Shown here piece after piece: positions 42,618-51,922 of a stretch of 64,000 nt of DNA. Below the pieces are notes generated by a model. It did no database searches. It saw nothing but the letters and a program-made list of their open reading frames with translations, and was not told where the DNA came from. Source of the stretch: Natrinema caseinilyticum (GTDB lineage: Archaea; Halobacteriota; Halobacteria; Halobacteriales; Natrialbaceae); assembly GCF_024227435.1 (NCBI RefSeq), contig NZ_CP100445.1, positions 1 through 64,000 on the forward strand, given 5' to 3'. A program made the position numbers and the translations under genes. Numbering within the stretch: the stretch's first letter is position 1; each line of letters starts with the position of its first letter.

Positions 42618-43226
42618 ATGATGTCCCCCATCGCGCTTCCACACGACGCGAAGGCCGGACCGACCAAGTCGGAGGTCCGTGCCGTCGTTCGGTCGAAGCT
42701 CGCGCTCGAGTCGGACGATCACTTCGCGGAGGTCGGTTCCTGTACGGGAGCCGTCACGATCGAAGCCGCACAGCGAGCCGGGCGGGTGACCGCCCTCGAA
42801 CGAAAGTCGGAGCGACTCGAGACGACCGAGCGGAACCTCGCCGCGAACGAGGAGTCGGTCCGGGCCGACGTCGAACTGCGCAACGCGGAAGCGCCCGCGG
42901 GGCTGCCCGACGACGCCGATGCGCTCTTTCTGGGTGGGAGCCGTAACTTCGAGGCCGTGCTCGACCACGCCGTCGAAACCGCCATCGATCGGGTCGTGAT
43001 GAACGTTTCCCGACTCGAGGTTGCCGGGCGAGCCGCGGCGGCCTTCCGCGAGCGCGACCTGCTCCGCGAGATCGTCCAGTTCCAGGTGAGCCACGGCTAC
43101 GAACTGGCCGGCGCGACGAGTTTCGACGCGGACAACCCGGTCTACATGCTGGTCGGGAGCGCGACGTCGGACGAAGACGGCGATGGCACCGAAACAGTCG
43201 CCGACGGCGGTGAGGCGACCCGATGA
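42618..43226 (+). CDS. cbiT: Cobalt-precorrin-6B C15-methyltransferase (decarboxylating) CbiT
   Basis: Class I SAM methyltransferase that methylates C15 and removes the C12 acetate carboxyl. About 202 residues: LPHDAKAGPTKSEVRAVVRS is the CbiT start, followed by motif I FAEVGSCTGAVTIEAAQRAG (a Cys-Thr variant of the usual GCGSG), VTALERKSERL, and ALFLGGSRNFEAVLDHAVET (GGS motif typical of CbiT). Starts at ATG 42618 or 42621. First gene of the main cob operon; overlaps cbiL by 4 bases. The acidic C-terminal tail is not conserved. Confidence 0.93.
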   Translation: MMSPIALPHDAKAGPTKSEVRAVVRSKLALESDDHFAEVGSCTGAVTIEAAQRAGRVTALERKSERLETTERNLAANEESVRADVELRNAEAPAGLPDDADALFLGGSRNFEAVLDHAVETAIDRVVMNVSRLEVAGRAAAAFRERDLLREIVQFQVSHGYELAGATSFDADNPVYMLVGSATSDEDGDGTETVADGGEATR

Positions 43227-44032
43227 CGCTGTCCGGCGTCGGACTCGGACCCGGCGAGGCCGACCTCGTGACCGTCCGCGGGAAGAGGGTCCTCGAGAAC
43301 GCCGACGTTGTCTACTCGCCGGGCCGCCTGTCGCGGACCGTCGCGCTCGAGCACGTCGACGAGTCGAAGATCGGCGATCTCGAGTTCCCGATGACGAGAG
43401 ACGAGGAGAAACTGCGGGCGGCGTGGAAGGAGGCCGCGGCGGAGATCGCCCCGAACGCGCGCGACGGCGACGTCGCGTTCGTCACACTGGGCGACCCGAA
43501 CGTGTACTCGACCTTCGGGCACCTCCGCCGGACGATCGACGCGTTCCACCCCGACGTGGACCTCGAGATCGTCCCCGGCGTGAGCGCGGTAACGGCCTTC
43601 GCGACCGCGCTGGGGGTCGAGATCGAGGCCGGTGCGGGGCTCTCCTTGCGGGAGGCCGCCGGCGGCCACAGCCCGACGGGGCCGGATCGGATGATCCTGT
43701 TCAAGGTAACCGATGCGCCGGCCACCCACGAGGGCCTCGCCGAGGCCAATTACGAGGTGACCTACGGCCGCCGGCTATTCATGGAGCAGGGCGAGACGCT
43801 CGTCACTGACGATCCCGCAGCGATCGACCAGCGCGACTACTACACGCTCGCCTACGCCGAGAAAGCGGACCTCCAGGTCGAGCGGGCGACTGCGGCCTTC
43901 GAGACCGATCGCACTGAGTCGGAGGCCCGCTCGGACGGCGGCCGCGAGGTGAGCGACGACGAACGGGCCGCCACAGAGCGCGCGAACGGCTGCGAGGGTG
44001 GCGACTGCGGACACGGCGGAGGGCACCGATGA
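43223..44032 (+). CDS. cbiL: Cobalt-factor II C20-methyltransferase CbiL
   Basis: Tetrapyrrole methylase fold, 269 residues. SGVGLGPGEADLVTVRGKRV, VTLGDPNVYSTFGHLRRTID, LEIVPGVSAVTAFATALGVE and a final RDYYTLAYAEK place it in CbiL. The C terminus carries an extra acidic tail ending CEGGDCGHGGGHR, a Cys/His cluster that could bind cobalt or nickel. Both ends overlap neighbours by ATGA, so expression is tightly coupled. Confidence 0.93.
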   Translation: MTLSGVGLGPGEADLVTVRGKRVLENADVVYSPGRLSRTVALEHVDESKIGDLEFPMTRDEEKLRAAWKEAAAEIAPNARDGDVAFVTLGDPNVYSTFGHLRRTIDAFHPDVDLEIVPGVSAVTAFATALGVEIEAGAGLSLREAAGGHSPTGPDRMILFKVTDAPATHEGLAEANYEVTYGRRLFMEQGETLVTDDPAAIDQRDYYTLAYAEKADLQVERATAAFETDRTESEARSDGGREVSDDERAATERANGCEGGDCGHGGGHR

Positions 44033-44931: not shown

Positions 44932-44991
44932 GATGCGCCGGAATTGCGGCTGGGAACGCCGCGAGCCGTTCGATTTACTGGAGGTTCGGCT

Positions 44992-45990
44992 ATGAGCTCA
45001 GGAACTGAGAACGCGGATACGACTGACGATGGTGGATCGGACGCCGAGGGCGGTCACTGTTCGACGCCGGATTCGGACGGCGAAGTCGCGACGGAGATCG
45101 CGATCGTCTCCTTCGACCGGAAGATGGACACCGCCGAGGAGATCGAAGCGGGAATCGGTGATCGCTACGAGACGGTCGATGTCATCGAGTATCACGGCGA
45201 CGTCTTCGAGGAGCACTGGGGCGAGTACGACTGTTTCGTCGGTCTGATGGCCTCCGGGATCGCGATGCGGAAGACGGCCCACCTGCTCGACGACAAGTGG
45301 GACGATCCGGCCATCTGCGTCGTCGACGAGGAACTGACGTGGGCCATCCCGATCACGGGCGGCCACCACGGCGCGAATCAAGTCGCACAGGACCTCGCGA
45401 CGATGGGCGCGGTCCCGGCGATGACAACCGCGAGCGAAGCCGCGGGCAAGCGAGGTGTCGAGTCGCGCGCGAAGGCGATGGACGCCCACATCGTCAACGG
45501 CGATTCGACGGTGCAGACGAACCTCGCCGTCCTGGACGACACCCTCGGGCCCGTGGCCAGACTCGACGGCCCGAAGGCCGTGCTCGTCGGCGACGACGTG
45601 ACGGTCCTCAAGCGCAACACGGACGACGGGATCGTCGTCGGCACCGGCAGCGTCTCCGGTGCGAGTAAAGCGGCGTTCCTCGCCGCGTGGGAGACGGCCC
45701 TCGAGCAAACCGACGACGACCTCGCCGACGTCGAGTTCGTCGCCACCGCGACGCGAAAGGAAGACGAGGACGGCCTGCTCGCGGCCGCCCGGGAACTCGA
45801 CCTCGGCGTCGTCGCGTTCGACAAGGAAACGCTGCTCGCACACGAGGGGCCGACCCCCTCGAAGTCGAAGGAACTGATCGGCTGGCCCGGCGTCTCCGAG
45901 GCCGCCGCAATCGCAGGTGGAGCCGAGCAGGAACTCGTACTCGAGAAAATCAGCTACGAGGGCGAGGTTACGGTGGCGATCGGTCGATGA
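44992..45990 (+). CDS. cbiG: Cobalt-precorrin-5A hydrolase CbiG
   Basis: Opens the delta-lactone ring and releases acetaldehyde. 332 residues: an acidic N-terminal extension, then [80 protein letters not shown], and the C-terminal CbiG domain [34 protein letters not shown] 44992 is chosen because a good ribosome-binding site (GGAGG) stands about 9 bases upstream, one of the few clear ones in the operon. Confidence 0.94.
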
Positions 45991-46874
45991 GCGGGACCGA
46001 AACCGACGCCACGGACGCGAGCGCCGAGGCCGACGGCACCCCCGCCGACCACGGTACGCTCTCCGTCGTCGGCATCGGTCCCGGCCTACCCGACCACATG
46101 ACCAAGCGGGCCGCCGTGGTTATCGAATCGGCGGACGTCGTCATCGCTTCGAGCCTCTACCAGGAGTTCCTGCGGGCCGACGGGACGATCCCACCGGAGG
46201 AGCGAACCGACGTGGACGGGATCGCCACTCGAGACGACGGATCCACGCAGGAGATCGTCCGCTCGACGATGGGCCGCCAGACCGAACTCGCCCGCGCGGC
46301 ATTCGACTACGTCCGGGAGGGAGAGGACGTGGCACACGTCTCCGGCGGCGACCCGTCGGTCTACGGCAAGTCGGATCTCGTCTTCAAGATGGCCGACGAA
46401 GCGGACGCGACGGACGTGCCGATCGAGATCGTTCCCGGCCTCACCGCGGCGCTCGGCGGCGCTGCCAACGTCGGTGCGCCGCTGTGTAACGACTTCTGTA
46501 CGGTCTCGCTGTCGGACAAGTGGCGCGGCTGGGACGAGATCGAGGAGAAGCTTCGCGCAGCCGCGATTTCTGGCTTCGTGATCGTTCTCTACAACTGCTG
46601 GCGCAACTACGAGAAGGCCGTCGATATCGTCCGCGAGGAGCGGACCGACGGCGCCGCCGTGGCCATCGTCAACGACGCCGGCCGGGAAGACGCCGGGCGC
46701 AACGGCGAGAGCCAGTTCATCACGACGTTGGGCGAGGCCGCCGACCACGACGACAAGGTGTCGGGGATGGGAACCTCGCTGATCATCGGCAATCACGAGA
46801 CCGAAACCTGGCGCAACGACGACCGAACGTACCTCGTCACCCCCCGCGGCGGGCGTGACGTCGACGATTTCTGA
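45987..46874 (+). CDS. cbiH: Cobalt-factor III C17-methyltransferase CbiH, first copy
   Basis: 295 residues; start ATG overlaps the cbiG stop. Tetrapyrrole methylase: LSVVGIGPGLPDHMTKRAAV, VAHVSGGDPSVYGKSDLVFK, EIVPGLTAALGGAANVGAPL, CNDFCTVSLSDKWRGWDEIE, VIVLYNCWRNYEKAVDIVRE and YLVTPRGGRDVDDF. The NDF.TVSLSD and YN motifs are those of CbiH. It diverges from the second copy and from classical CbiH (GKSDLVFK, no signature YALAG), so the two may have separate roles. Confidence 0.9.
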   Translation: MSGTETDATDASAEADGTPADHGTLSVVGIGPGLPDHMTKRAAVVIESADVVIASSLYQEFLRADGTIPPEERTDVDGIATRDDGSTQEIVRSTMGRQTELARAAFDYVREGEDVAHVSGGDPSVYGKSDLVFKMADEADATDVPIEIVPGLTAALGGAANVGAPLCNDFCTVSLSDKWRGWDEIEEKLRAAAISGFVIVLYNCWRNYEKAVDIVREERTDGAAVAIVNDAGREDAGRNGESQFITTLGEAADHDDKVSGMGTSLIIGNHETETWRNDDRTYLVTPRGGRDVDDF

Positions 46875-46892: not shown

Positions 46893-47921
46893 ATGAGCAC
46901 GGACACCAACGCGGATGCTGACACGGAATCGACTTCCAACTGCGGTGCCTCGCCGAGCGAAGCGAGCACCGACGACTCGAGTTCGAACTACGGCGCCTCG
47001 AGCAGCACCGACGACTCGAGTAGCTCCGAATGCGGCGCGTCCTCGAGTTCGAGTGCCTCGTCTTCGAGCGTGTGCAGCGCCTCGAGTTCCGACGACTCGA
47101 GCAGTAACGAGCGGGAGGTCGGCGCGACGGTCGACGACTTCGACGCCTCGCCCGGTCAATTGATCGCCGTCGGCCTCGGTCCCGGCCATCCGGAGGGGAT
47201 GACCGAGCGAGCGAAGTCGGCGCTGCTCGAGGCCGATCACATCGTCGGCTATACGACCTACATCGAGCTGATTCCCGACGAAATCACCGAGGAGGCCGAC
47301 GACGTCTACGACACGCCGATGTGCGGCGAGGTCTCCCGAACCGAGGAGTCGATCGACCGTGCGCTCGCTGGAAACGACGTGGCCATCGTCGGGAGCGGCG
47401 ACCCGAACGTCTACGCGCTCGCGGGGCTCGCACTCGAGATACTCGAGTCCAAGGGCGCGACGGCCTCGATGGTCGACTTCGAGGTCGTTCCCGGCGTGCC
47501 GGCGGCCCAGTCCTGTGCGGCCCGACTGGGCGCGCCGCTGGTGAACGACACCGTCTCGGTGTCGCTCTCGGACCACCTCGTCCCGATGCCGGAGATCGAG
47601 TCGCGACTGCACTCGGTGGCCAGCGAGAACTTCACGATCACCATCTACAACCCGTGGAGCCGCAAGCGCCGGAAGAACTACGAGAAGTGCTGTGAGATCC
47701 TCCTGGCTCACCGCGATCCAGACACGTCGGTCGGCATCGTCCACGGGGCCGGCCGCGACGACGAGCAGGTGACGATCACCGAACTCGGTGAACTCGAGGA
47801 ACTCGGCGAGAGCGAGATCATCGACATGACGACGACGATCGTCGTCGGCACCGAGGACACCTACGTCTGGGACGACCGGATGGTGACCCCGCGCGGCTAC
47901 GAGACGAAGTACGACTACTGA
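46893..47921 (+). CDS. cbiH2: Cobalt-factor III C17-methyltransferase CbiH, second copy, with Ser-rich N terminus
   Basis: 342 residues. The first about 75 residues are a low-complexity Ser/Asp region with repeats SECGASSSS, SNYGASSSTDDSSS and CSASSSDDSSS. The methylase follows: LIAVGLGPGHPEGMTERAKS, HIVGYTTYIELIPDE, VAIVGSGDPNVYALAGLALE, EVVPGVPAAQSCAARLGAPL, VNDTVSVSLSDHLVPMPEIE, FTITIYNPWSRKRRKNYEKC, VTPRGYETKYDY. This is the canonical CbiH copy. Confidence 0.93.
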   Translation: MSTDTNADADTESTSNCGASPSEASTDDSSSNYGASSSTDDSSSSECGASSSSSASSSSVCSASSSDDSSSNEREVGATVDDFDASPGQLIAVGLGPGHPEGMTERAKSALLEADHIVGYTTYIELIPDEITEEADDVYDTPMCGEVSRTEESIDRALAGNDVAIVGSGDPNVYALAGLALEILESKGATASMVDFEVVPGVPAAQSCAARLGAPLVNDTVSVSLSDHLVPMPEIESRLHSVASENFTITIYNPWSRKRRKNYEKCCEILLAHRDPDTSVGIVHGAGRDDEQVTITELGELEELGESEIIDMTTTIVVGTEDTYVWDDRMVTPRGYETKYDY

Positions 47922-47951: not shown

Positions 47952-48218
47952 ATGCCACGATACGAAGTCACCATCGAGAAAGACGCCTGTGACGGCATCT
48001 TCGCCTGCCTGACCCGCGACCCGCGGTTCGTCGAGGGCGGGGACGGCCTCGCGACGATCGATCCCGGCGCGGATCCGGTCTACGACTGCGAGGGCGAAGT
48101 GACTGACGACGCCGAGCGCGTCGTCGCGACGTTCGACGACGACCGCATCGACGAGGCCCAGCAGGCCGCCGCGGCCTGCCCGACGGACGCAATCGTCGTC
48201 CGGGAGGTGGGCGAATGA
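47952..48218 (+). CDS. Small ferredoxin in the cobalamin operon
   Basis: 88 residues. DACDGIFACLTRDPRFVEGG and a late AAAACPTDAIVV give the C...C...CP arrangement of single-cluster ([3Fe-4S] or [4Fe-4S]) ferredoxins, with a further Cys at about 45. The acidic insertion between is haloarchaeal. It could supply electrons to a reduction step of corrin synthesis, for example the missing precorrin-6A reductase step. It overlaps the next gene by 4 bases. Confidence 0.85.
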   Translation: MPRYEVTIEKDACDGIFACLTRDPRFVEGGDGLATIDPGADPVYDCEGEVTDDAERVVATFDDDRIDEAQQAAAACPTDAIVVREVGE

Positions 48219-48931
48219 GCGGTACGGAAGCTCCGACCGAAGTCGAGGTCCCGTTGGATCCGCTCGCGGGCCACCCCGCGACGGCGTACTTCTGGGGTCA
48301 CGTCGCCGGTAGCGGCGACGTCTCGGACGACCGAATCGAAGTGGTGACCAACGACGAGGAATCTGCACAGGTGCTCGCCGCGGTCGCGGGCGGCGACCTC
48401 GAGCATGAGACGACCACCCGCGACTACGCCCACGACACTTCGATCACGCGCACGGAAGACGAGTACGCGCTGTCAATCGACGGAGAGGGGAGCGAACGAG
48501 ACGATCCCGCCGGCGCGGGTCTGCTCGGACGGAGCGGCGCGCTCGGCCTCCCCGTCGACGGCCGTGGAAACTATCGCTTCGGTGCGTTCGCGAGCCACGA
48601 TCGTGAACTGCTCCGGGGCCTGCTCGAGGGCTGTGGCACGATCTGTTTCAAGTCCTCCAGTGGAACGGTCGGCATCTCGTTCGTTCACGACGATCGAGCG
48701 TTGCTCGAGCTCGCGCGGGAGCTGATCGCGGAGTGTCCGGTCGACGCGCCCGTCGACGAGCTCTCGGAGACCTCGTCGGGCGGTTACTGGTTCGGCGTCG
48801 ACGACGCCGCCGCGCCCGACTTCGGGACGTGGTGCTACGGGGACTGCGAGGAAACCGGACTGTTCGCGCCGAGTCGCCGGCGCAAACTCGAGCAGAGCCT
48901 CGAGCAGGCCGATGCGTACGACGACGAGTAG
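48215..48931 (+). CDS. Cobalamin-operon orphan with degenerate LAGLIDADG fold
   Basis: 238 residues, translationally coupled to the ferredoxin. Two segments match the LAGLIDADG helix pattern position by position: FWGHVAGSG at 26-34, followed by DDRIEVVTNDEESAQVLAAV, and LRGLLEGCG at 133-141, followed by VGISFVHDDRALLELARELI. The spacing of about 107 residues and the C-terminal CYGDCEETGLFAPSRRRKLE also fit a two-repeat homing-endonuclease fold. The aspartate that binds catalytic metal is replaced in both motifs (Ser33, Cys140), so nuclease activity is unlikely. The cluster CYGDC (207-211) plus Cys140 could bind metal or a thiol. Role in B12 synthesis inferred only from position. Confidence 0.75.
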   Translation: MSGTEAPTEVEVPLDPLAGHPATAYFWGHVAGSGDVSDDRIEVVTNDEESAQVLAAVAGGDLEHETTTRDYAHDTSITRTEDEYALSIDGEGSERDDPAGAGLLGRSGALGLPVDGRGNYRFGAFASHDRELLRGLLEGCGTICFKSSSGTVGISFVHDDRALLELARELIAECPVDAPVDELSETSSGGYWFGVDDAAAPDFGTWCYGDCEETGLFAPSRRRKLEQSLEQADAYDDE

Positions 48932-48961: not shown

Positions 48962-50188
48962 ATGAGTACACCCGACGAGACCACGCCCGCGCCCGGCTTC
49001 GACGACGAGGCCGTCCTGCTGGTCGGCCACGGTTCCCGGCACGAGAAGTCGAACGAACAGGTTCGCGAACTGGCCGCCGACCTCGAGTCCCGGCTCGGGA
49101 TCCCGGTCGACGCCGCGTTCCTCGAACTCGCGGAGCCCGCGATCGACGAGGCCTTCGCGGAACTCGCACTCGTCGTGTCGAGAGTGACCGTCGTCCACTG
49201 CTCGTTGTTCGCCGCGAGCCACGTGAAAAACGACGTGCCGCTCTCGATCGAGCGGGCTCGCGCCGAACACGACCTCGAGATCGACAACGGGGGCCACCTG
49301 GGTGTTCATCCGGCGATTCTCGACCTCCTGGACGACCGCGCCGCCGCCGTCGAGTGTGACCTGGACGTCGATCGCAGCGCGGACGACGTCGCCGTCGTCC
49401 TCTGTGCGCGGGGCTCGAGCGATCCGGACGCCAACGGCGACGTTCACAAACTCGCCCGCCTGCTGTTCGAAGGCCGCGCGTTCGATCGCGTCGAGGCGAC
49501 GTTCATCGGTGTGACGGAACCGACCCTCGACGACACGCTCCACGGCCTTTCGAAACACAGGCCCGACGCCGTCGTCGTCCTGCCGTACATGCTCGGGGAC
49601 GGCGTCCTTACCCAACGCGTGCGCGACTGGACGGGCGGATTCCACGACGAGTATCCGTACGTCGACGCGCTCGCCGGCGACCCGCTCGGAACCGACTCCC
49701 GGTTACTCGACGTTTTCGCCGATCGCTGGCAGGAGGCCCGAAGCGGGAGCGTGGAAATGTCCTGTGACACGTGCAAGTACAAAGTCGACCTCGAGGGCTA
49801 CGAGGAGGACGTCGGCGGCGCGCGAGCGATGCTCCGGGCGCTGGCCCACCAGGAGGCCCACGCCGACCGCGAGGACGTCGACGACGAACCCCACAGCCAC
49901 GACGCGCCGGAAAAGCACGTCGCGGTTTGCATGAATCAGACCTGCGCCGAGCAGGGGTCGCCGGCGGTTCTCGAGCGACTGCGACAGGAAACCCGCGACT
50001 CAGCGCACTGCGATGCTCGCATCACGCGATCGTCCTGTCTGAGCCGGTGTGGCGACGGGCCGATGGTCGCGGTCTACCCCGACGGGGTCTGGTACGGCGA
50101 TGTCGCGAGCGAGGACGCCGAGCGGATCGTGGGCGACCATCTCGACCGGGACCGAATCGTCAGCGACCTCGTCGATCAGACGCTGTAG
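48962..50188 (+). CDS. cbiX: Sirohydrochlorin cobaltochelatase CbiX fused to a [2Fe-2S] domain
   Basis: 408 residues. Two CbiX-type halves: VLLVGHGSRHEKSNEQVREL and VHCSLFAASHVKNDVPLSIE in the first (His residues of the chelatase site), VAVVLCARGSSDPDANGDVH and VVLPYMLGDGVLTQRVRDW in the second. A His/Cys-containing linker (MSCDTCKYKVDLEG) precedes a C-terminal thioredoxin-like [2Fe-2S] ferredoxin domain with Cys in CMNQTC, SSCLSRCGDGPMVAVYPDGV. CbiX inserts Co2+ into sirohydrochlorin, the early step of the anaerobic route. Fe-S tails on CbiX are known but their role is not settled. Confidence 0.94.
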   Translation: MSTPDETTPAPGFDDEAVLLVGHGSRHEKSNEQVRELAADLESRLGIPVDAAFLELAEPAIDEAFAELALVVSRVTVVHCSLFAASHVKNDVPLSIERARAEHDLEIDNGGHLGVHPAILDLLDDRAAAVECDLDVDRSADDVAVVLCARGSSDPDANGDVHKLARLLFEGRAFDRVEATFIGVTEPTLDDTLHGLSKHRPDAVVVLPYMLGDGVLTQRVRDWTGGFHDEYPYVDALAGDPLGTDSRLLDVFADRWQEARSGSVEMSCDTCKYKVDLEGYEEDVGGARAMLRALAHQEAHADREDVDDEPHSHDAPEKHVAVCMNQTCAEQGSPAVLERLRQETRDSAHCDARITRSSCLSRCGDGPMVAVYPDGVWYGDVASEDAERIVGDHLDRDRIVSDLVDQTL

Positions 50189-50267: not shown

Positions 50268-50639
50268 ATGAGCTGTCACGAAATCGAAGCACTGCGACTC
50301 GGACTGATGAGCGTCCTCGGCGTCGGGGACGATAGCGCCCGCGAACACGCGGAAAAAGAACTCGAGGGCCACCTCGAGGGCCCGATTCGGGGCCTCGCGG
50401 AGGCCGGTAGCCTCGCGGAGGTCCAGCGCCACCTCGACGCGGCGCTGGTCGATTTAGAGGAATCGATCGCAGCGATGGACAGCGACGACCCCGAGTACGG
50501 TTATACGCGAGGACGACTGCTTGCCGTTCGCGACGCCGAGCGAGCGGTAGCGCGGCTGAGCGTACAGGGAGAGAGCATCGTCGACGGACTCGGGGATGCC
50601 CACGACACCCTCCACGAGACCTTTCCGGTCGAGGAGTGA
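50268..50639 (+). CDS. DUF3209 family protein of the cobalamin operon
   Basis: 123 residues, all helical. The start MSCHEIEALRLGLMSVLGVG is characteristic of the DUF3209 family that accompanies cbi genes (from memory of the family). CHE at residues 3-5 could be a metal ligand. No biochemical role is known to me. The stop overlaps the region of the next gene's start by a few bases, so the two are coupled. Confidence 0.85.
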   Translation: MSCHEIEALRLGLMSVLGVGDDSAREHAEKELEGHLEGPIRGLAEAGSLAEVQRHLDAALVDLEESIAAMDSDDPEYGYTRGRLLAVRDAERAVARLSVQGESIVDGLGDAHDTLHETFPVEE

Positions 50640-50641
50640 CG

Positions 50642-51922
50642 ATGAGCGAAACGATGAGCGAAGCCGATTCCGAGACCGAGTTCCGGTCGGTCCCCCTCGG
50701 CGAGATCGAGCCCGCCCGGAGCCGACACATGTGGACCCGATCCGCAGTCGACGTCGCCGAGTCCGGCGACCTCGTCGTCACCGGCGAGTGGGACGGCACG
50801 GTCACCGCCCGCGACGCCGACTCGCTCGCGGCGCGCTGGACGGCCGACCATCCGGACCACGCGGTCGGGATCGCATCGATCGCGGGTGACGACGCCGAGA
50901 CGATCGTCGTCGCCGGCCGCGGTGAGACGGGAACAATCGCGGCCTACGACGCCGAGACGGGCGACCGGCGCTGGCGCTACGACACCGTCGACGATCTCGG
51001 CGAGGCGGTCAAGGACGCCGTCTTCTACCTTCCCTACGTCGTCGCGCTCGAGATCGGAACAGACGCCGACGGCAACGAGGTGTTCTATGCGGCCGCGCGC
51101 CGCTACGAGCGCGACGGCGAGATCCGCCGGTGGCACAGCGCGGTCTACGCGCTCGAGGCTGATGGAACGGTACGCTGGAGCTACGGGACCGACGCCTCAC
51201 CGATCGCGCTCGATCTCGACGCCGATGGCGAGCGCCTCGCGGTCGGCTACAACCGCTGTATGGGCGACCACGACACCGGCCTCGTCGTCCTCGAGACCGA
51301 GGCCGGCGGCGTCGAATGGACCTGGGACCCCGGAACGGTGGGTGACCGACGCGTCGGCGATGTCTCCGTCGACGGGAAATCGATCGCCGTCTCGAGCCAC
51401 GGGGACAAGCGCGGCTATCTGTTGGGTCCCGGCGGGGCCGAGCGATGGAGCGTCGACCTCGCGTGCGAAACCGAAATCGACGGTGAGACGCTGTACGCGT
51501 ATCCGAATCACGTCACCGCGAGTGACGACCGGGTGGCGTTCGTGACCGGGAACACCTACGCGAAAGCGAGCCGCGAGACCGAGAATCGACATCCGAACGA
51601 ACACCGAATCGTCGCGTTCGACGGACTCGGTGAGTTCGTCTGGGAGGACGAACTCCGCGGCTTCGTTCACGGTCTCGGCGTCGGCGGCGAGCGGATCGTC
51701 GCTCCCTGCGCCCAGAACTTCCGAGTGCGTGATCCCGAGACGCACGGCGTCCGCTGGTTCGACCTCGACCGGGGTGACGGCGGGACCGCGGACGTCGACG
51801 GAATCGCAACCGCGGCCGCCGTCGATTCCGGGACGGTCGCCGTCGTCGAAGAGCCGGTCGAGTACCACGATGACGGCGAGACGCGCGGCGAGTACGCGCT
51901 CCGTGTCGGATCGTTCGAGTAG
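50642..51922 (+). CDS. PQQ-like beta-propeller protein of the cobalamin operon
   Basis: About 427 residues in blades of the form VVTGEWDGTVTARDADSLAA, VVAGRGETGTIAAYDAETGD, AVYALEADGTVRWSYGTDAS, LVVLETEAGGVEWTWDPGTV, typical of PQQ/BamB-like propellers (W-D or W-R/K closing each blade). No signal peptide, unlike most of that family, so it should be cytoplasmic. Last gene of the operon; a scaffold or cofactor-handling role is possible. Start ATG 50642 or 50654. Confidence 0.85.
   Translation: MSETMSEADSETEFRSVPLGEIEPARSRHMWTRSAVDVAESGDLVVTGEWDGTVTARDADSLAARWTADHPDHAVGIASIAGDDAETIVVAGRGETGTIAAYDAETGDRRWRYDTVDDLGEAVKDAVFYLPYVVALEIGTDADGNEVFYAAARRYERDGEIRRWHSAVYALEADGTVRWSYGTDASPIALDLDADGERLAVGYNRCMGDHDTGLVVLETEAGGVEWTWDPGTVGDRRVGDVSVDGKSIAVSSHGDKRGYLLGPGGAERWSVDLACETEIDGETLYAYPNHVTASDDRVAFVTGNTYAKASRETENRHPNEHRIVAFDGLGEFVWEDELRGFVHGLGVGGERIVAPCAQNFRVRDPETHGVRWFDLDRGDGGTADVDGIATAAAVDSGTVAVVEEPVEYHDDGETRGEYALRVGSFE

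What the first reader, a model, noticed from the sequence alone, without database searches (positions are those of the whole stretch)
48215..48931. Domesticated LAGLIDADG-fold protein in the B12 operon
FWGHVAGSG and LRGLLEGCG align to the LAGLIDADG motif residue for residue, each followed by the usual strand and helix, with a homing-endonuclease-like C terminus. The metal-binding Asp is Ser in one and Cys in the other. The gene is translationally fused in expression to a ferredoxin and sits before cbiX, so a nuclease fold seems recruited for corrin synthesis, cobalt delivery or regulation. To my knowledge it has not been characterised.
Basis: partly seen in the sequence, partly recalled or inferred. 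Interest (0 to 1): 0.85.

Follow-up and report, generated by a model that had tools for sequence, protein, structure and literature searches.

The report
Retired DNA-cutter fold in B12 operon
A salt-loving archaeon carries, inside its vitamin B12 gene cluster, a protein with the shape of a selfish DNA-cutting enzyme whose cutting site has been lost; it is kept by essentially every oxygen-respiring relative that makes B12, so an old nuclease fold has probably been put to work in making the vitamin.

Summary
ORF 48215-48931 encodes 238 aa with two LAGLIDADG motifs. AlphaFold2 (pLDDT 87, pTM 0.84) gives the doubled alpha-beta-beta-alpha-beta-beta fold. All 49 PDB matches at E<=0.001 are LAGLIDADG proteins (WhiA 2e-6, I-DmoI 3e-6).

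It is not a mobile endonuclease. Acidic ligand 2 is Cys in 60 of 62 homologues; ligand 1 is Asp in half and Ser/Ala/Gly/Asn elsewhere. The gene sits as ferredoxin>this>cbiX in 116 of 120 loci, with a 4-bp overlap to the ferredoxin in 112 of 118. Of 194 haloarchaeal genomes, 102 have it, all within the 106 with cbiG.

New points. (1) The three cbiG+ genomes lacking haem-copper oxidase also lack it, the ferredoxin (at the operon), DUF3209 and CbiX's 2Fe-2S domain. CbiD and CbiJ are absent from all 194 genomes, so it is probably not their stand-in. (2) The one aerobic cbiG+ genome without it has a second cbiX in exactly its place.

Best reading (about 0.4): a nuclease-dead accessory protein of aerobic cobalt-early B12 synthesis, acting with ferredoxin and CbiX near cobalt insertion. 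Function is inferred. The orthologue HVO_B0055 is listed as unassigned; I found no published mention of its fold.

The parts
48215..48931 (+). LAGLIDADG-fold protein, 238 aa (orthologue, by position and neighbours, of HVO_B0055)
   Evidence: AF2 and Foldseek; Pfam on homologues
48290..48316 (+). LAGLIDADG motif 1, residues 26-34 FWGHVAGSG (S33 replaces the catalytic Asp)
   Evidence: sequence; position 33 is S27 D27 A3 G3 N2 in 62 homologues
48611..48637 (+). LAGLIDADG motif 2, residues 133-141 LRGLLEGCG (C140 replaces the catalytic acid)
   Evidence: C in 60 of 62
48632..48646 (+). conserved C140-x3-C144 pair at the former active site
   Evidence: C140 60/62, C144 62/62
47952..48218 (+). single-cluster ferredoxin (Fer4_15), stop overlaps the start of the LAGLIDADG gene (ATGA)
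   Evidence: Pfam E 1.2e-14; overlap conserved 112/118
48962..50188 (+). cbiX cobaltochelatase, MSCDTC (MXCXXC) motif and C-terminal thioredoxin-like 2Fe-2S domain
   Evidence: Pfam CbiX 1.5e-43 and 2Fe-2S_thioredx 7.3e-7
50268..50639 (+). DUF3209 protein, same operon
   Evidence: Pfam 5.7e-51; present in exactly the 103 genomes that are cbiG+ and COX1+
50636..51922 (+). PQQ/beta-propeller repeat protein, overlaps DUF3209
   Evidence: Pfam PQQ_2 2.4e-9; conserved neighbour
46893..47921 (+). cbiH2 (C17 methyltransferase / ring contraction), Cys/Ser-rich N-terminal extension
   Evidence: TIGR01466 1e-90
45987..46874 (+). cbiH1, second CbiH-like methylase (start inferred from ATGA overlap with cbiG)
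   Evidence: neighbour of cbiH2 in relatives
44944..45990 (+). cbiG (longest frame; start uncertain)
   Evidence: marker used for pathway presence

Best explanation
A haloarchaeal LAGLIDADG protein was domesticated in or before the ancestor of the aerobic-type B12 operon, lost its nuclease active site, and became a fixed part of that operon (shown: predicted fold, loss of acids, synteny, distribution, purifying selection). Most likely it works as a non-catalytic or redox accessory protein at the cobalt-insertion end of the cobalt-early pathway. It would partner the co-translated ferredoxin and the 2Fe-2S-bearing CbiX. It would use the conserved C140/C144 pair (with H73 and H158 as possible further ligands) in the old active site to hold Co(II) or the Co-tetrapyrrole in a usable redox state when oxygen is present (inferred). 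Its conserved Arg/Lys residues could hold the polycarboxylate tetrapyrrole in place of DNA (inferred).
For: Fold: AF2 pLDDT 87, pTM 0.84, helix-strand-strand-helix-strand-strand twice; Foldseek top hits WhiA, I-DmoI, bI3 maturase, PI-SceI; Pfam LAGLIDADG_3 in 25 of 62 homologues. B12 link: found in 102 of 194 genomes, all inside the 106 cbiG+ set (Fisher p 4e-51, not corrected for ancestry); ferredoxin>LAG>cbiX in 116/120 loci. Aerobic link: haem-copper oxidase is absent from 4 of 194 genomes; the 3 of these with cbiG (G061, G065, G165) all lack LAG (Fisher p 2e-5, but only two lineages). Their operons also lack ferredoxin, DUF3209, the propeller and CbiX's 2Fe-2S domain. Thermus and Leptospira pair the same long CbiX (2Fe-2S) with DUF3209. 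Link to cobalt insertion: in G013, aerobic and nested among LAG+ operons, LAG is gone and a second cbiX with a His-rich tail stands between ferredoxin and cbiX, keeping the 4-bp overlap. Not DNA-facing: the family is more acidic and less basic (K+R 8.5%, D+E 18.7%) than intein LAGLIDADG domains of haloarchaea (12.2%, 15.8%). Conserved C140/C144/H73/H158.
Against: No biochemical or genetic data. The aerobic association rests on three genomes from two lineages, and the replacement by a second cbiX on one genome. A regulator would show the same genomic co-occurrence. The anaerobes' deeply separate operon could solve the missing steps differently.
Confidence: 0.4

Rival explanations
1. It is (part of) the enzyme that fills one of the two missing steps of haloarchaeal B12 synthesis, C1 methylation (CbiD) or reduction of Co-precorrin-6A (CbiJ), for example a ferredoxin-driven reductase. 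This is the published suggestion for the four unassigned genes of the cluster.
For: CbiD and CbiJ are absent from all 194 genomes while the same searches find them in control genomes. Pfeiffer and Dyall-Smith name the unassigned cluster genes as obvious gap candidates (PMC8305020). Co-translation with a ferredoxin fits a reductase.
Against: G061, G065 and G165 have cbiT, L, F, G, H1, H2 and X, lack CbiD and CbiJ, and lack this gene too. G013 also lacks it while keeping the rest of the operon. No nucleotide- or SAM-binding fold is seen.
Confidence: 0.2
2. It is a DNA-binding regulator of the B12 operon, like WhiA, perhaps sensing redox through the co-translated Fe-S ferredoxin (a parallel to WhiA-WhiB).
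For: The closest solved structure is WhiA, a domesticated LAGLIDADG transcription factor, which acts with the Fe-S protein WhiB (PMC4850268). Fixed pairing with an Fe-S protein.
Against: No helix-turn-helix segment (238 aa is taken up by the two repeats). Family charge is shifted to acidic relative to DNA-binding relatives of the same class. It is buried mid-operon and was replaced by a chelatase gene in G013.
Confidence: 0.15
3. It is a scaffold that holds ferredoxin, CbiX and CbiH together in a channelling complex, with no ligand of its own.
For: Fixed position and translational coupling; loss of catalytic residues.
Against: Strong conservation is centred on the old active site (C140, C144, E138, R134, S155, S188, Y208, K224), which suggests a ligand.
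Confidence: 0.15
4. It is a free-standing homing endonuclease parked in the operon.
For: Fold.
Against: Acid 2 lost in the whole family and acid 1 lost in part of it; one copy at one fixed place, co-distributed with cbiG; purifying selection, dN/dS about 0.16-0.2 in three of four comparisons.
Confidence: 0.02

Closest known systems
WhiA (DUF199; PDB 3hyi, 8dy7)
   Same: Host-domesticated LAGLIDADG fold, best Foldseek match; partner of an Fe-S protein
   Different: WhiA has a C-terminal HTH and is a bacterial transcription factor; this protein has no HTH, is acidic, haloarchaeal and sits inside a B12 operon
Monomeric LAGLIDADG homing endonucleases (I-DmoI, PI-PfuI, haloarchaeal intein HEs; Pfam PF14528, PF05204)
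   Same: Two-repeat fold and motif helices; the family profile's only non-orthologous hit in 393 genomes is a LAGLIDADG-bearing 2061-aa ORF, E 7.7e-4 (same ORF)
   Different: Catalytic acids gone, not mobile, not in an intron or intein
HVO_B0055 of Haloferax volcanii (unassigned; RefSeq 'cobalamin biosynthesis protein' on relatives)
   Same: Same slot between ferredoxin and cbiX1; close Haloferax homologues recovered (L144, L151, L155, L161)
   Different: Published as function unassigned with no fold named (PMC8305020)
Long CbiX plus DUF3209 pair of Thermus and Leptospira B12 clusters
   Same: Same CbiX with C-terminal 2Fe-2S domain, next to DUF3209, in bacteria whose clusters also hold cobalt-early genes
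   Different: No LAGLIDADG protein in those clusters; CbiD (cobalt-precorrin-5B C1-methyltransferase) is annotated there

Membership tests
LAGLIDADG superfamily (fold) | Two-repeat alpha-beta-beta-alpha-beta-beta saddle with paired motif helices | tested here: met
   AF2 secondary structure; 49 PDB matches at E<=0.001, all LAGLIDADG
LAGLIDADG superfamily (fold) | Sequence match to LAGLIDADG profiles | tested here: met
   25 of 62 homologues match PF14528 at E<=1, best 2.7e-5, individual scores seen are just under the 22.5-bit cut-off; window protein alone gives none; hhalign to intein domains weak, E 0.013; no PDB sequence match
LAGLIDADG homing endonuclease (active) | Acidic metal ligand at the end of both motif helices | tested here: not met
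   S33 and C140; C140 in 60/62, Asp at 33 in 27/62
LAGLIDADG homing endonuclease (active) | Mobile, in intron, intein or scattered free-standing sites | tested here: not met
   fixed synteny 116/120, one copy per genome, distribution follows cbiG
WhiA | C-terminal helix-turn-helix domain | tested here: not met
   both repeats fill the 238 aa; only one long C-terminal helix, 219-237
WhiA | Sequence-specific DNA binding and transcription control | not testable with these tools
   only indirect: acidic charge shift
CbiD or CbiJ functional replacement | Present wherever cbi operons lack CbiD/CbiJ | tested here: not met
   absent in G013, G061, G065, G165, which also lack CbiD and CbiJ
CbiD or CbiJ functional replacement | Methyltransferase or reductase activity | not testable with these tools
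   needs substrate assays
CbiX accessory protein / cobalt handling | Conserved metal-capable residues at a defined site | tested here: inconclusive
   C140, C144, H73, H158 conserved, but distances not measured

The most novel reading that the evidence does not exclude
A homing-endonuclease fold has become a tetrapyrrole- or cobalt-binding protein: the DNA saddle holds a cobalt-corrin intermediate and the old Mg-binding active site is now a Cys pair that, fed by the co-translated ferredoxin, lets an oxygen-sensitive 'anaerobic' B12 pathway run in air.
Probability: 0.2. Interest if true: 0.9.

Novelty: new variant of a known kind. Interest (0 to 1): 0.62.

Why it matters
Domesticated LAGLIDADG proteins known to me (WhiA, HO, maturases) still act on nucleic acid. 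A member recruited into cofactor metabolism would widen what selfish nuclease folds can become. Haloarchaea make B12 by the oxygen-sensitive cobalt-early route while respiring oxygen, with two steps unexplained. This work separates the operon's unassigned genes into a set that tracks with aerobic life, which redirects the search for the missing CbiD and CbiJ steps (CbiH1 becomes the leading candidate for methylation) and can be tested in Haloferax volcanii.

Tried and rejected
Sequence-only links were weak and are not relied on: window protein against Pfam and NCBIfam gave nothing; profile against PDB sequences gave only chance hits; hhalign to intein LAGLIDADG domains E 0.013, repeat 2 alone 0.0096, repeat 1 alone and repeat 1 against repeat 2 not significant; low profile diversity (Neff about 2.7) limits this test.

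Rejected: active or parked homing endonuclease. Rejected: conserved Cys cluster beyond C140/C144. Weakened: CbiD/CbiJ stand-in.

An apparent cbiH2-ferredoxin fusion in Halospeciosus flavus (L143) is not used as evidence, because cbiG and cbiX of that locus are also frame-broken, so an indel artefact is likely.

The first dedupe script timed out. Identity of G061/G065 as Halodesulfurarchaeum is inferred from a 1.97-Mb genome size and lack of COX1, not shown; that genus does not grow with 0.1-5% O2 (PMC5437934).

Full report
What is there. ORF 48215-48931 (+) encodes 238 aa. Upstream lie cbiT, cbiL, cbiF, cbiG, cbiH1, cbiH2 and a single-cluster ferredoxin; downstream cbiX, DUF3209 and a beta-propeller protein. 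The ferredoxin stop and the ORF start share ATGA. This is a haloarchaeon; the nearest named record is Natrinema gelatinilyticum, 92% identical.

Fold. The window protein alone matches no Pfam or NCBIfam family. Among 62 homologues, 25 match Pfam LAGLIDADG_3 (best E 2.7e-5), some in repeat 1 (for example L043 17-51, L066 21-60), others in repeat 2 (L072 158-200, L044 116-170), and a few touch Hom_end in repeat 1. The individual scores I saw are just under the curated cut-off, so sequence alone is suggestive. AlphaFold2 on an alignment of 56 gave pLDDT 87, pTM 0.84 and the elements H21-33, E34-36, E40-45, H48-58, E61-70, E78-89, then H122-140, E141-146, E151-158, H161-172, E191-195 and C-terminal helices. 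Foldseek against the PDB gave 49 matches at E<=0.001, all LAGLIDADG proteins: WhiA 3hyi 2.0e-6, I-DmoI 2.8e-6, bI3 maturase, PI-SceI, PI-PfuI. A family profile run over 393 genomes of the phylum found only orthologues plus one other ORF, G033 C1:2486938-2487297 at E 7.7e-4; that 2061-aa ORF also carries LAGLIDADG_3 hits. The fold is taken as established at the level of prediction.

Active site. The acid that ends motif helix 1 is Ser here; across 62 homologues it is S27, D27, A3, G3, N2. The acid of helix 2 is Cys in 60 of 62. Conserved instead are C144 (62/62), R134, G135, E138, G141, S155, S188, Y208, K224, and H73 (61/62) and H158 (58/62). Loss of Asp in repeat 1 occurs in the window's own family and separately in other families (kinship). 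A nuclease needing both acids is excluded on known LAGLIDADG chemistry. dN/dS against three relatives is 0.16-0.20, and 0.42 against the closest one, so the protein is maintained.

Distribution. In an even sample of 194 Halobacteria genomes, 102 hold the gene and 106 hold cbiG; every gene+ genome is cbiG+. Order ferredoxin>gene>cbiX holds in 116 of 120 loci, with the 4-bp overlap in 112 of 118. So it belongs to B12 synthesis.

Does it fill a pathway gap? Haloarchaea lack CbiD and CbiJ: 0 of 194 for both, with positive controls elsewhere, in line with the published gap (PMC8305020; PMC6719526). The cluster's unassigned genes, among them HVO_B0055, are published as gap candidates. Four cbiG+ genomes lack the gene: G013, G061, G065, G165. 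In the last three the operon runs cbiT, L, F, G, H1, H2, X with no ferredoxin, DUF3209 or propeller beside it, and CbiX ends in a His-rich tail instead of a 2Fe-2S domain. These genomes lack CbiD and CbiJ as well. Haem-copper oxidase is present in 190 of 194 genomes; the four without it are G061, G065, G165 and the cbiG- G135. DUF3209 is present in 103 genomes, namely all cbiG+ COX1+ ones. So the extra genes track aerobic life rather than the CbiD/CbiJ gap. The anaerobic-type operons lie on a deep separate branch (long branches, rooting uncertain), and only two lineages are involved, so this is a lead and not a proof.

Link to cobalt insertion. G013 has haem-copper oxidase and an operon nested among gene+ operons. 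Between ferredoxin and cbiX it has, instead of this gene, a second cbiX of 313 aa with a His-rich tail, 61% identical to its own cbiX, starting in the same overlap with the ferredoxin. Other members of its genus have one match to that cbiX, and G039 and G058 keep the gene. One reading is functional replacement; chance is possible with one case. Thermus and Leptospira carry the same long CbiX with DUF3209 next to it, without the LAGLIDADG protein, so the CbiX/DUF3209 part of the set is shared with bacteria and the LAGLIDADG part is haloarchaeal. The MXCXXC motif of CbiX (MSCDTC) corresponds to the 4Fe-4S site reported for Bacillus CbiXL (title of reference 109 in PMC7242693).

Regulator? WhiA is the nearest structure, but there is no HTH, and the family has K+R 8.5% and D+E 18.7% against 12.2% and 15.8% in intein-type LAGLIDADG domains from the same class. 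This argues against, without excluding, DNA binding.

Mechanism, shown and inferred. Shown: fold (predicted), loss of nuclease acids, fixed place, co-translation signal, co-distribution with cbiG, absence from the three oxidase-lacking producers. Inferred: metal or tetrapyrrole binding at C140/C144, partnership with ferredoxin and CbiX, need under oxygen.

Known or new. The gene is known as unassigned (HVO_B0055; 'cobalamin biosynthesis protein' in RefSeq). That HVO_B0055 is the orthologue rests on its place between HVO_B0056 and cbiX1 HVO_B0054 and on close Haloferax homologues; I did not align HVO_B0055 itself. No held paper joins LAGLIDADG and B12 synthesis or mentions HVO_B0055 other than PMC8305020. 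Preprints and most subscription papers were not searchable. The fold assignment and the aerobic split appear new.

Noticed in passing
window 46893-47165 and L193 6354-6640: CbiH2 has a Cys/Ser-rich N-terminal extension (CGASSS-type units); in G013 it consists of near-perfect tandem copies. Could bind metal; function unknown.
   Followed up: no
L194, L195, L196: A second, anaerobic type of haloarchaeal B12 operon: cbiT-L-F-G-H1-H2-X with a His-rich CbiX tail, no ferredoxin, DUF3209 or propeller, in genomes lacking haem-copper oxidase.
   Followed up: partly
window 48962-50188; L216 11897-13000; L217 9811-10980: CbiX with C-terminal 2Fe-2S domain next to DUF3209 is shared by aerobic-type haloarchaea, Thermus and Leptospira, suggesting transfer of an oxygen-linked B12 module.
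   Followed up: partly
L193 7703-8644: Second cbiX exactly in the slot of the LAGLIDADG gene in G013.
   Followed up: yes
L143 4724-6010: cbiH2 and ferredoxin read as one 429-aa frame in Halospeciosus flavus; other genes of the locus are frame-broken, so possibly an assembly artefact.
   Followed up: partly
L199 11828-12424: G078 carries a divergent LAGLIDADG orthologue (about 32% identity) away from its cbi operon and from cbiX.
   Followed up: partly
window 43223-44032: CbiL ends in a His/Cys-rich tail (CEGGDCGHGGGHR).
   Followed up: no
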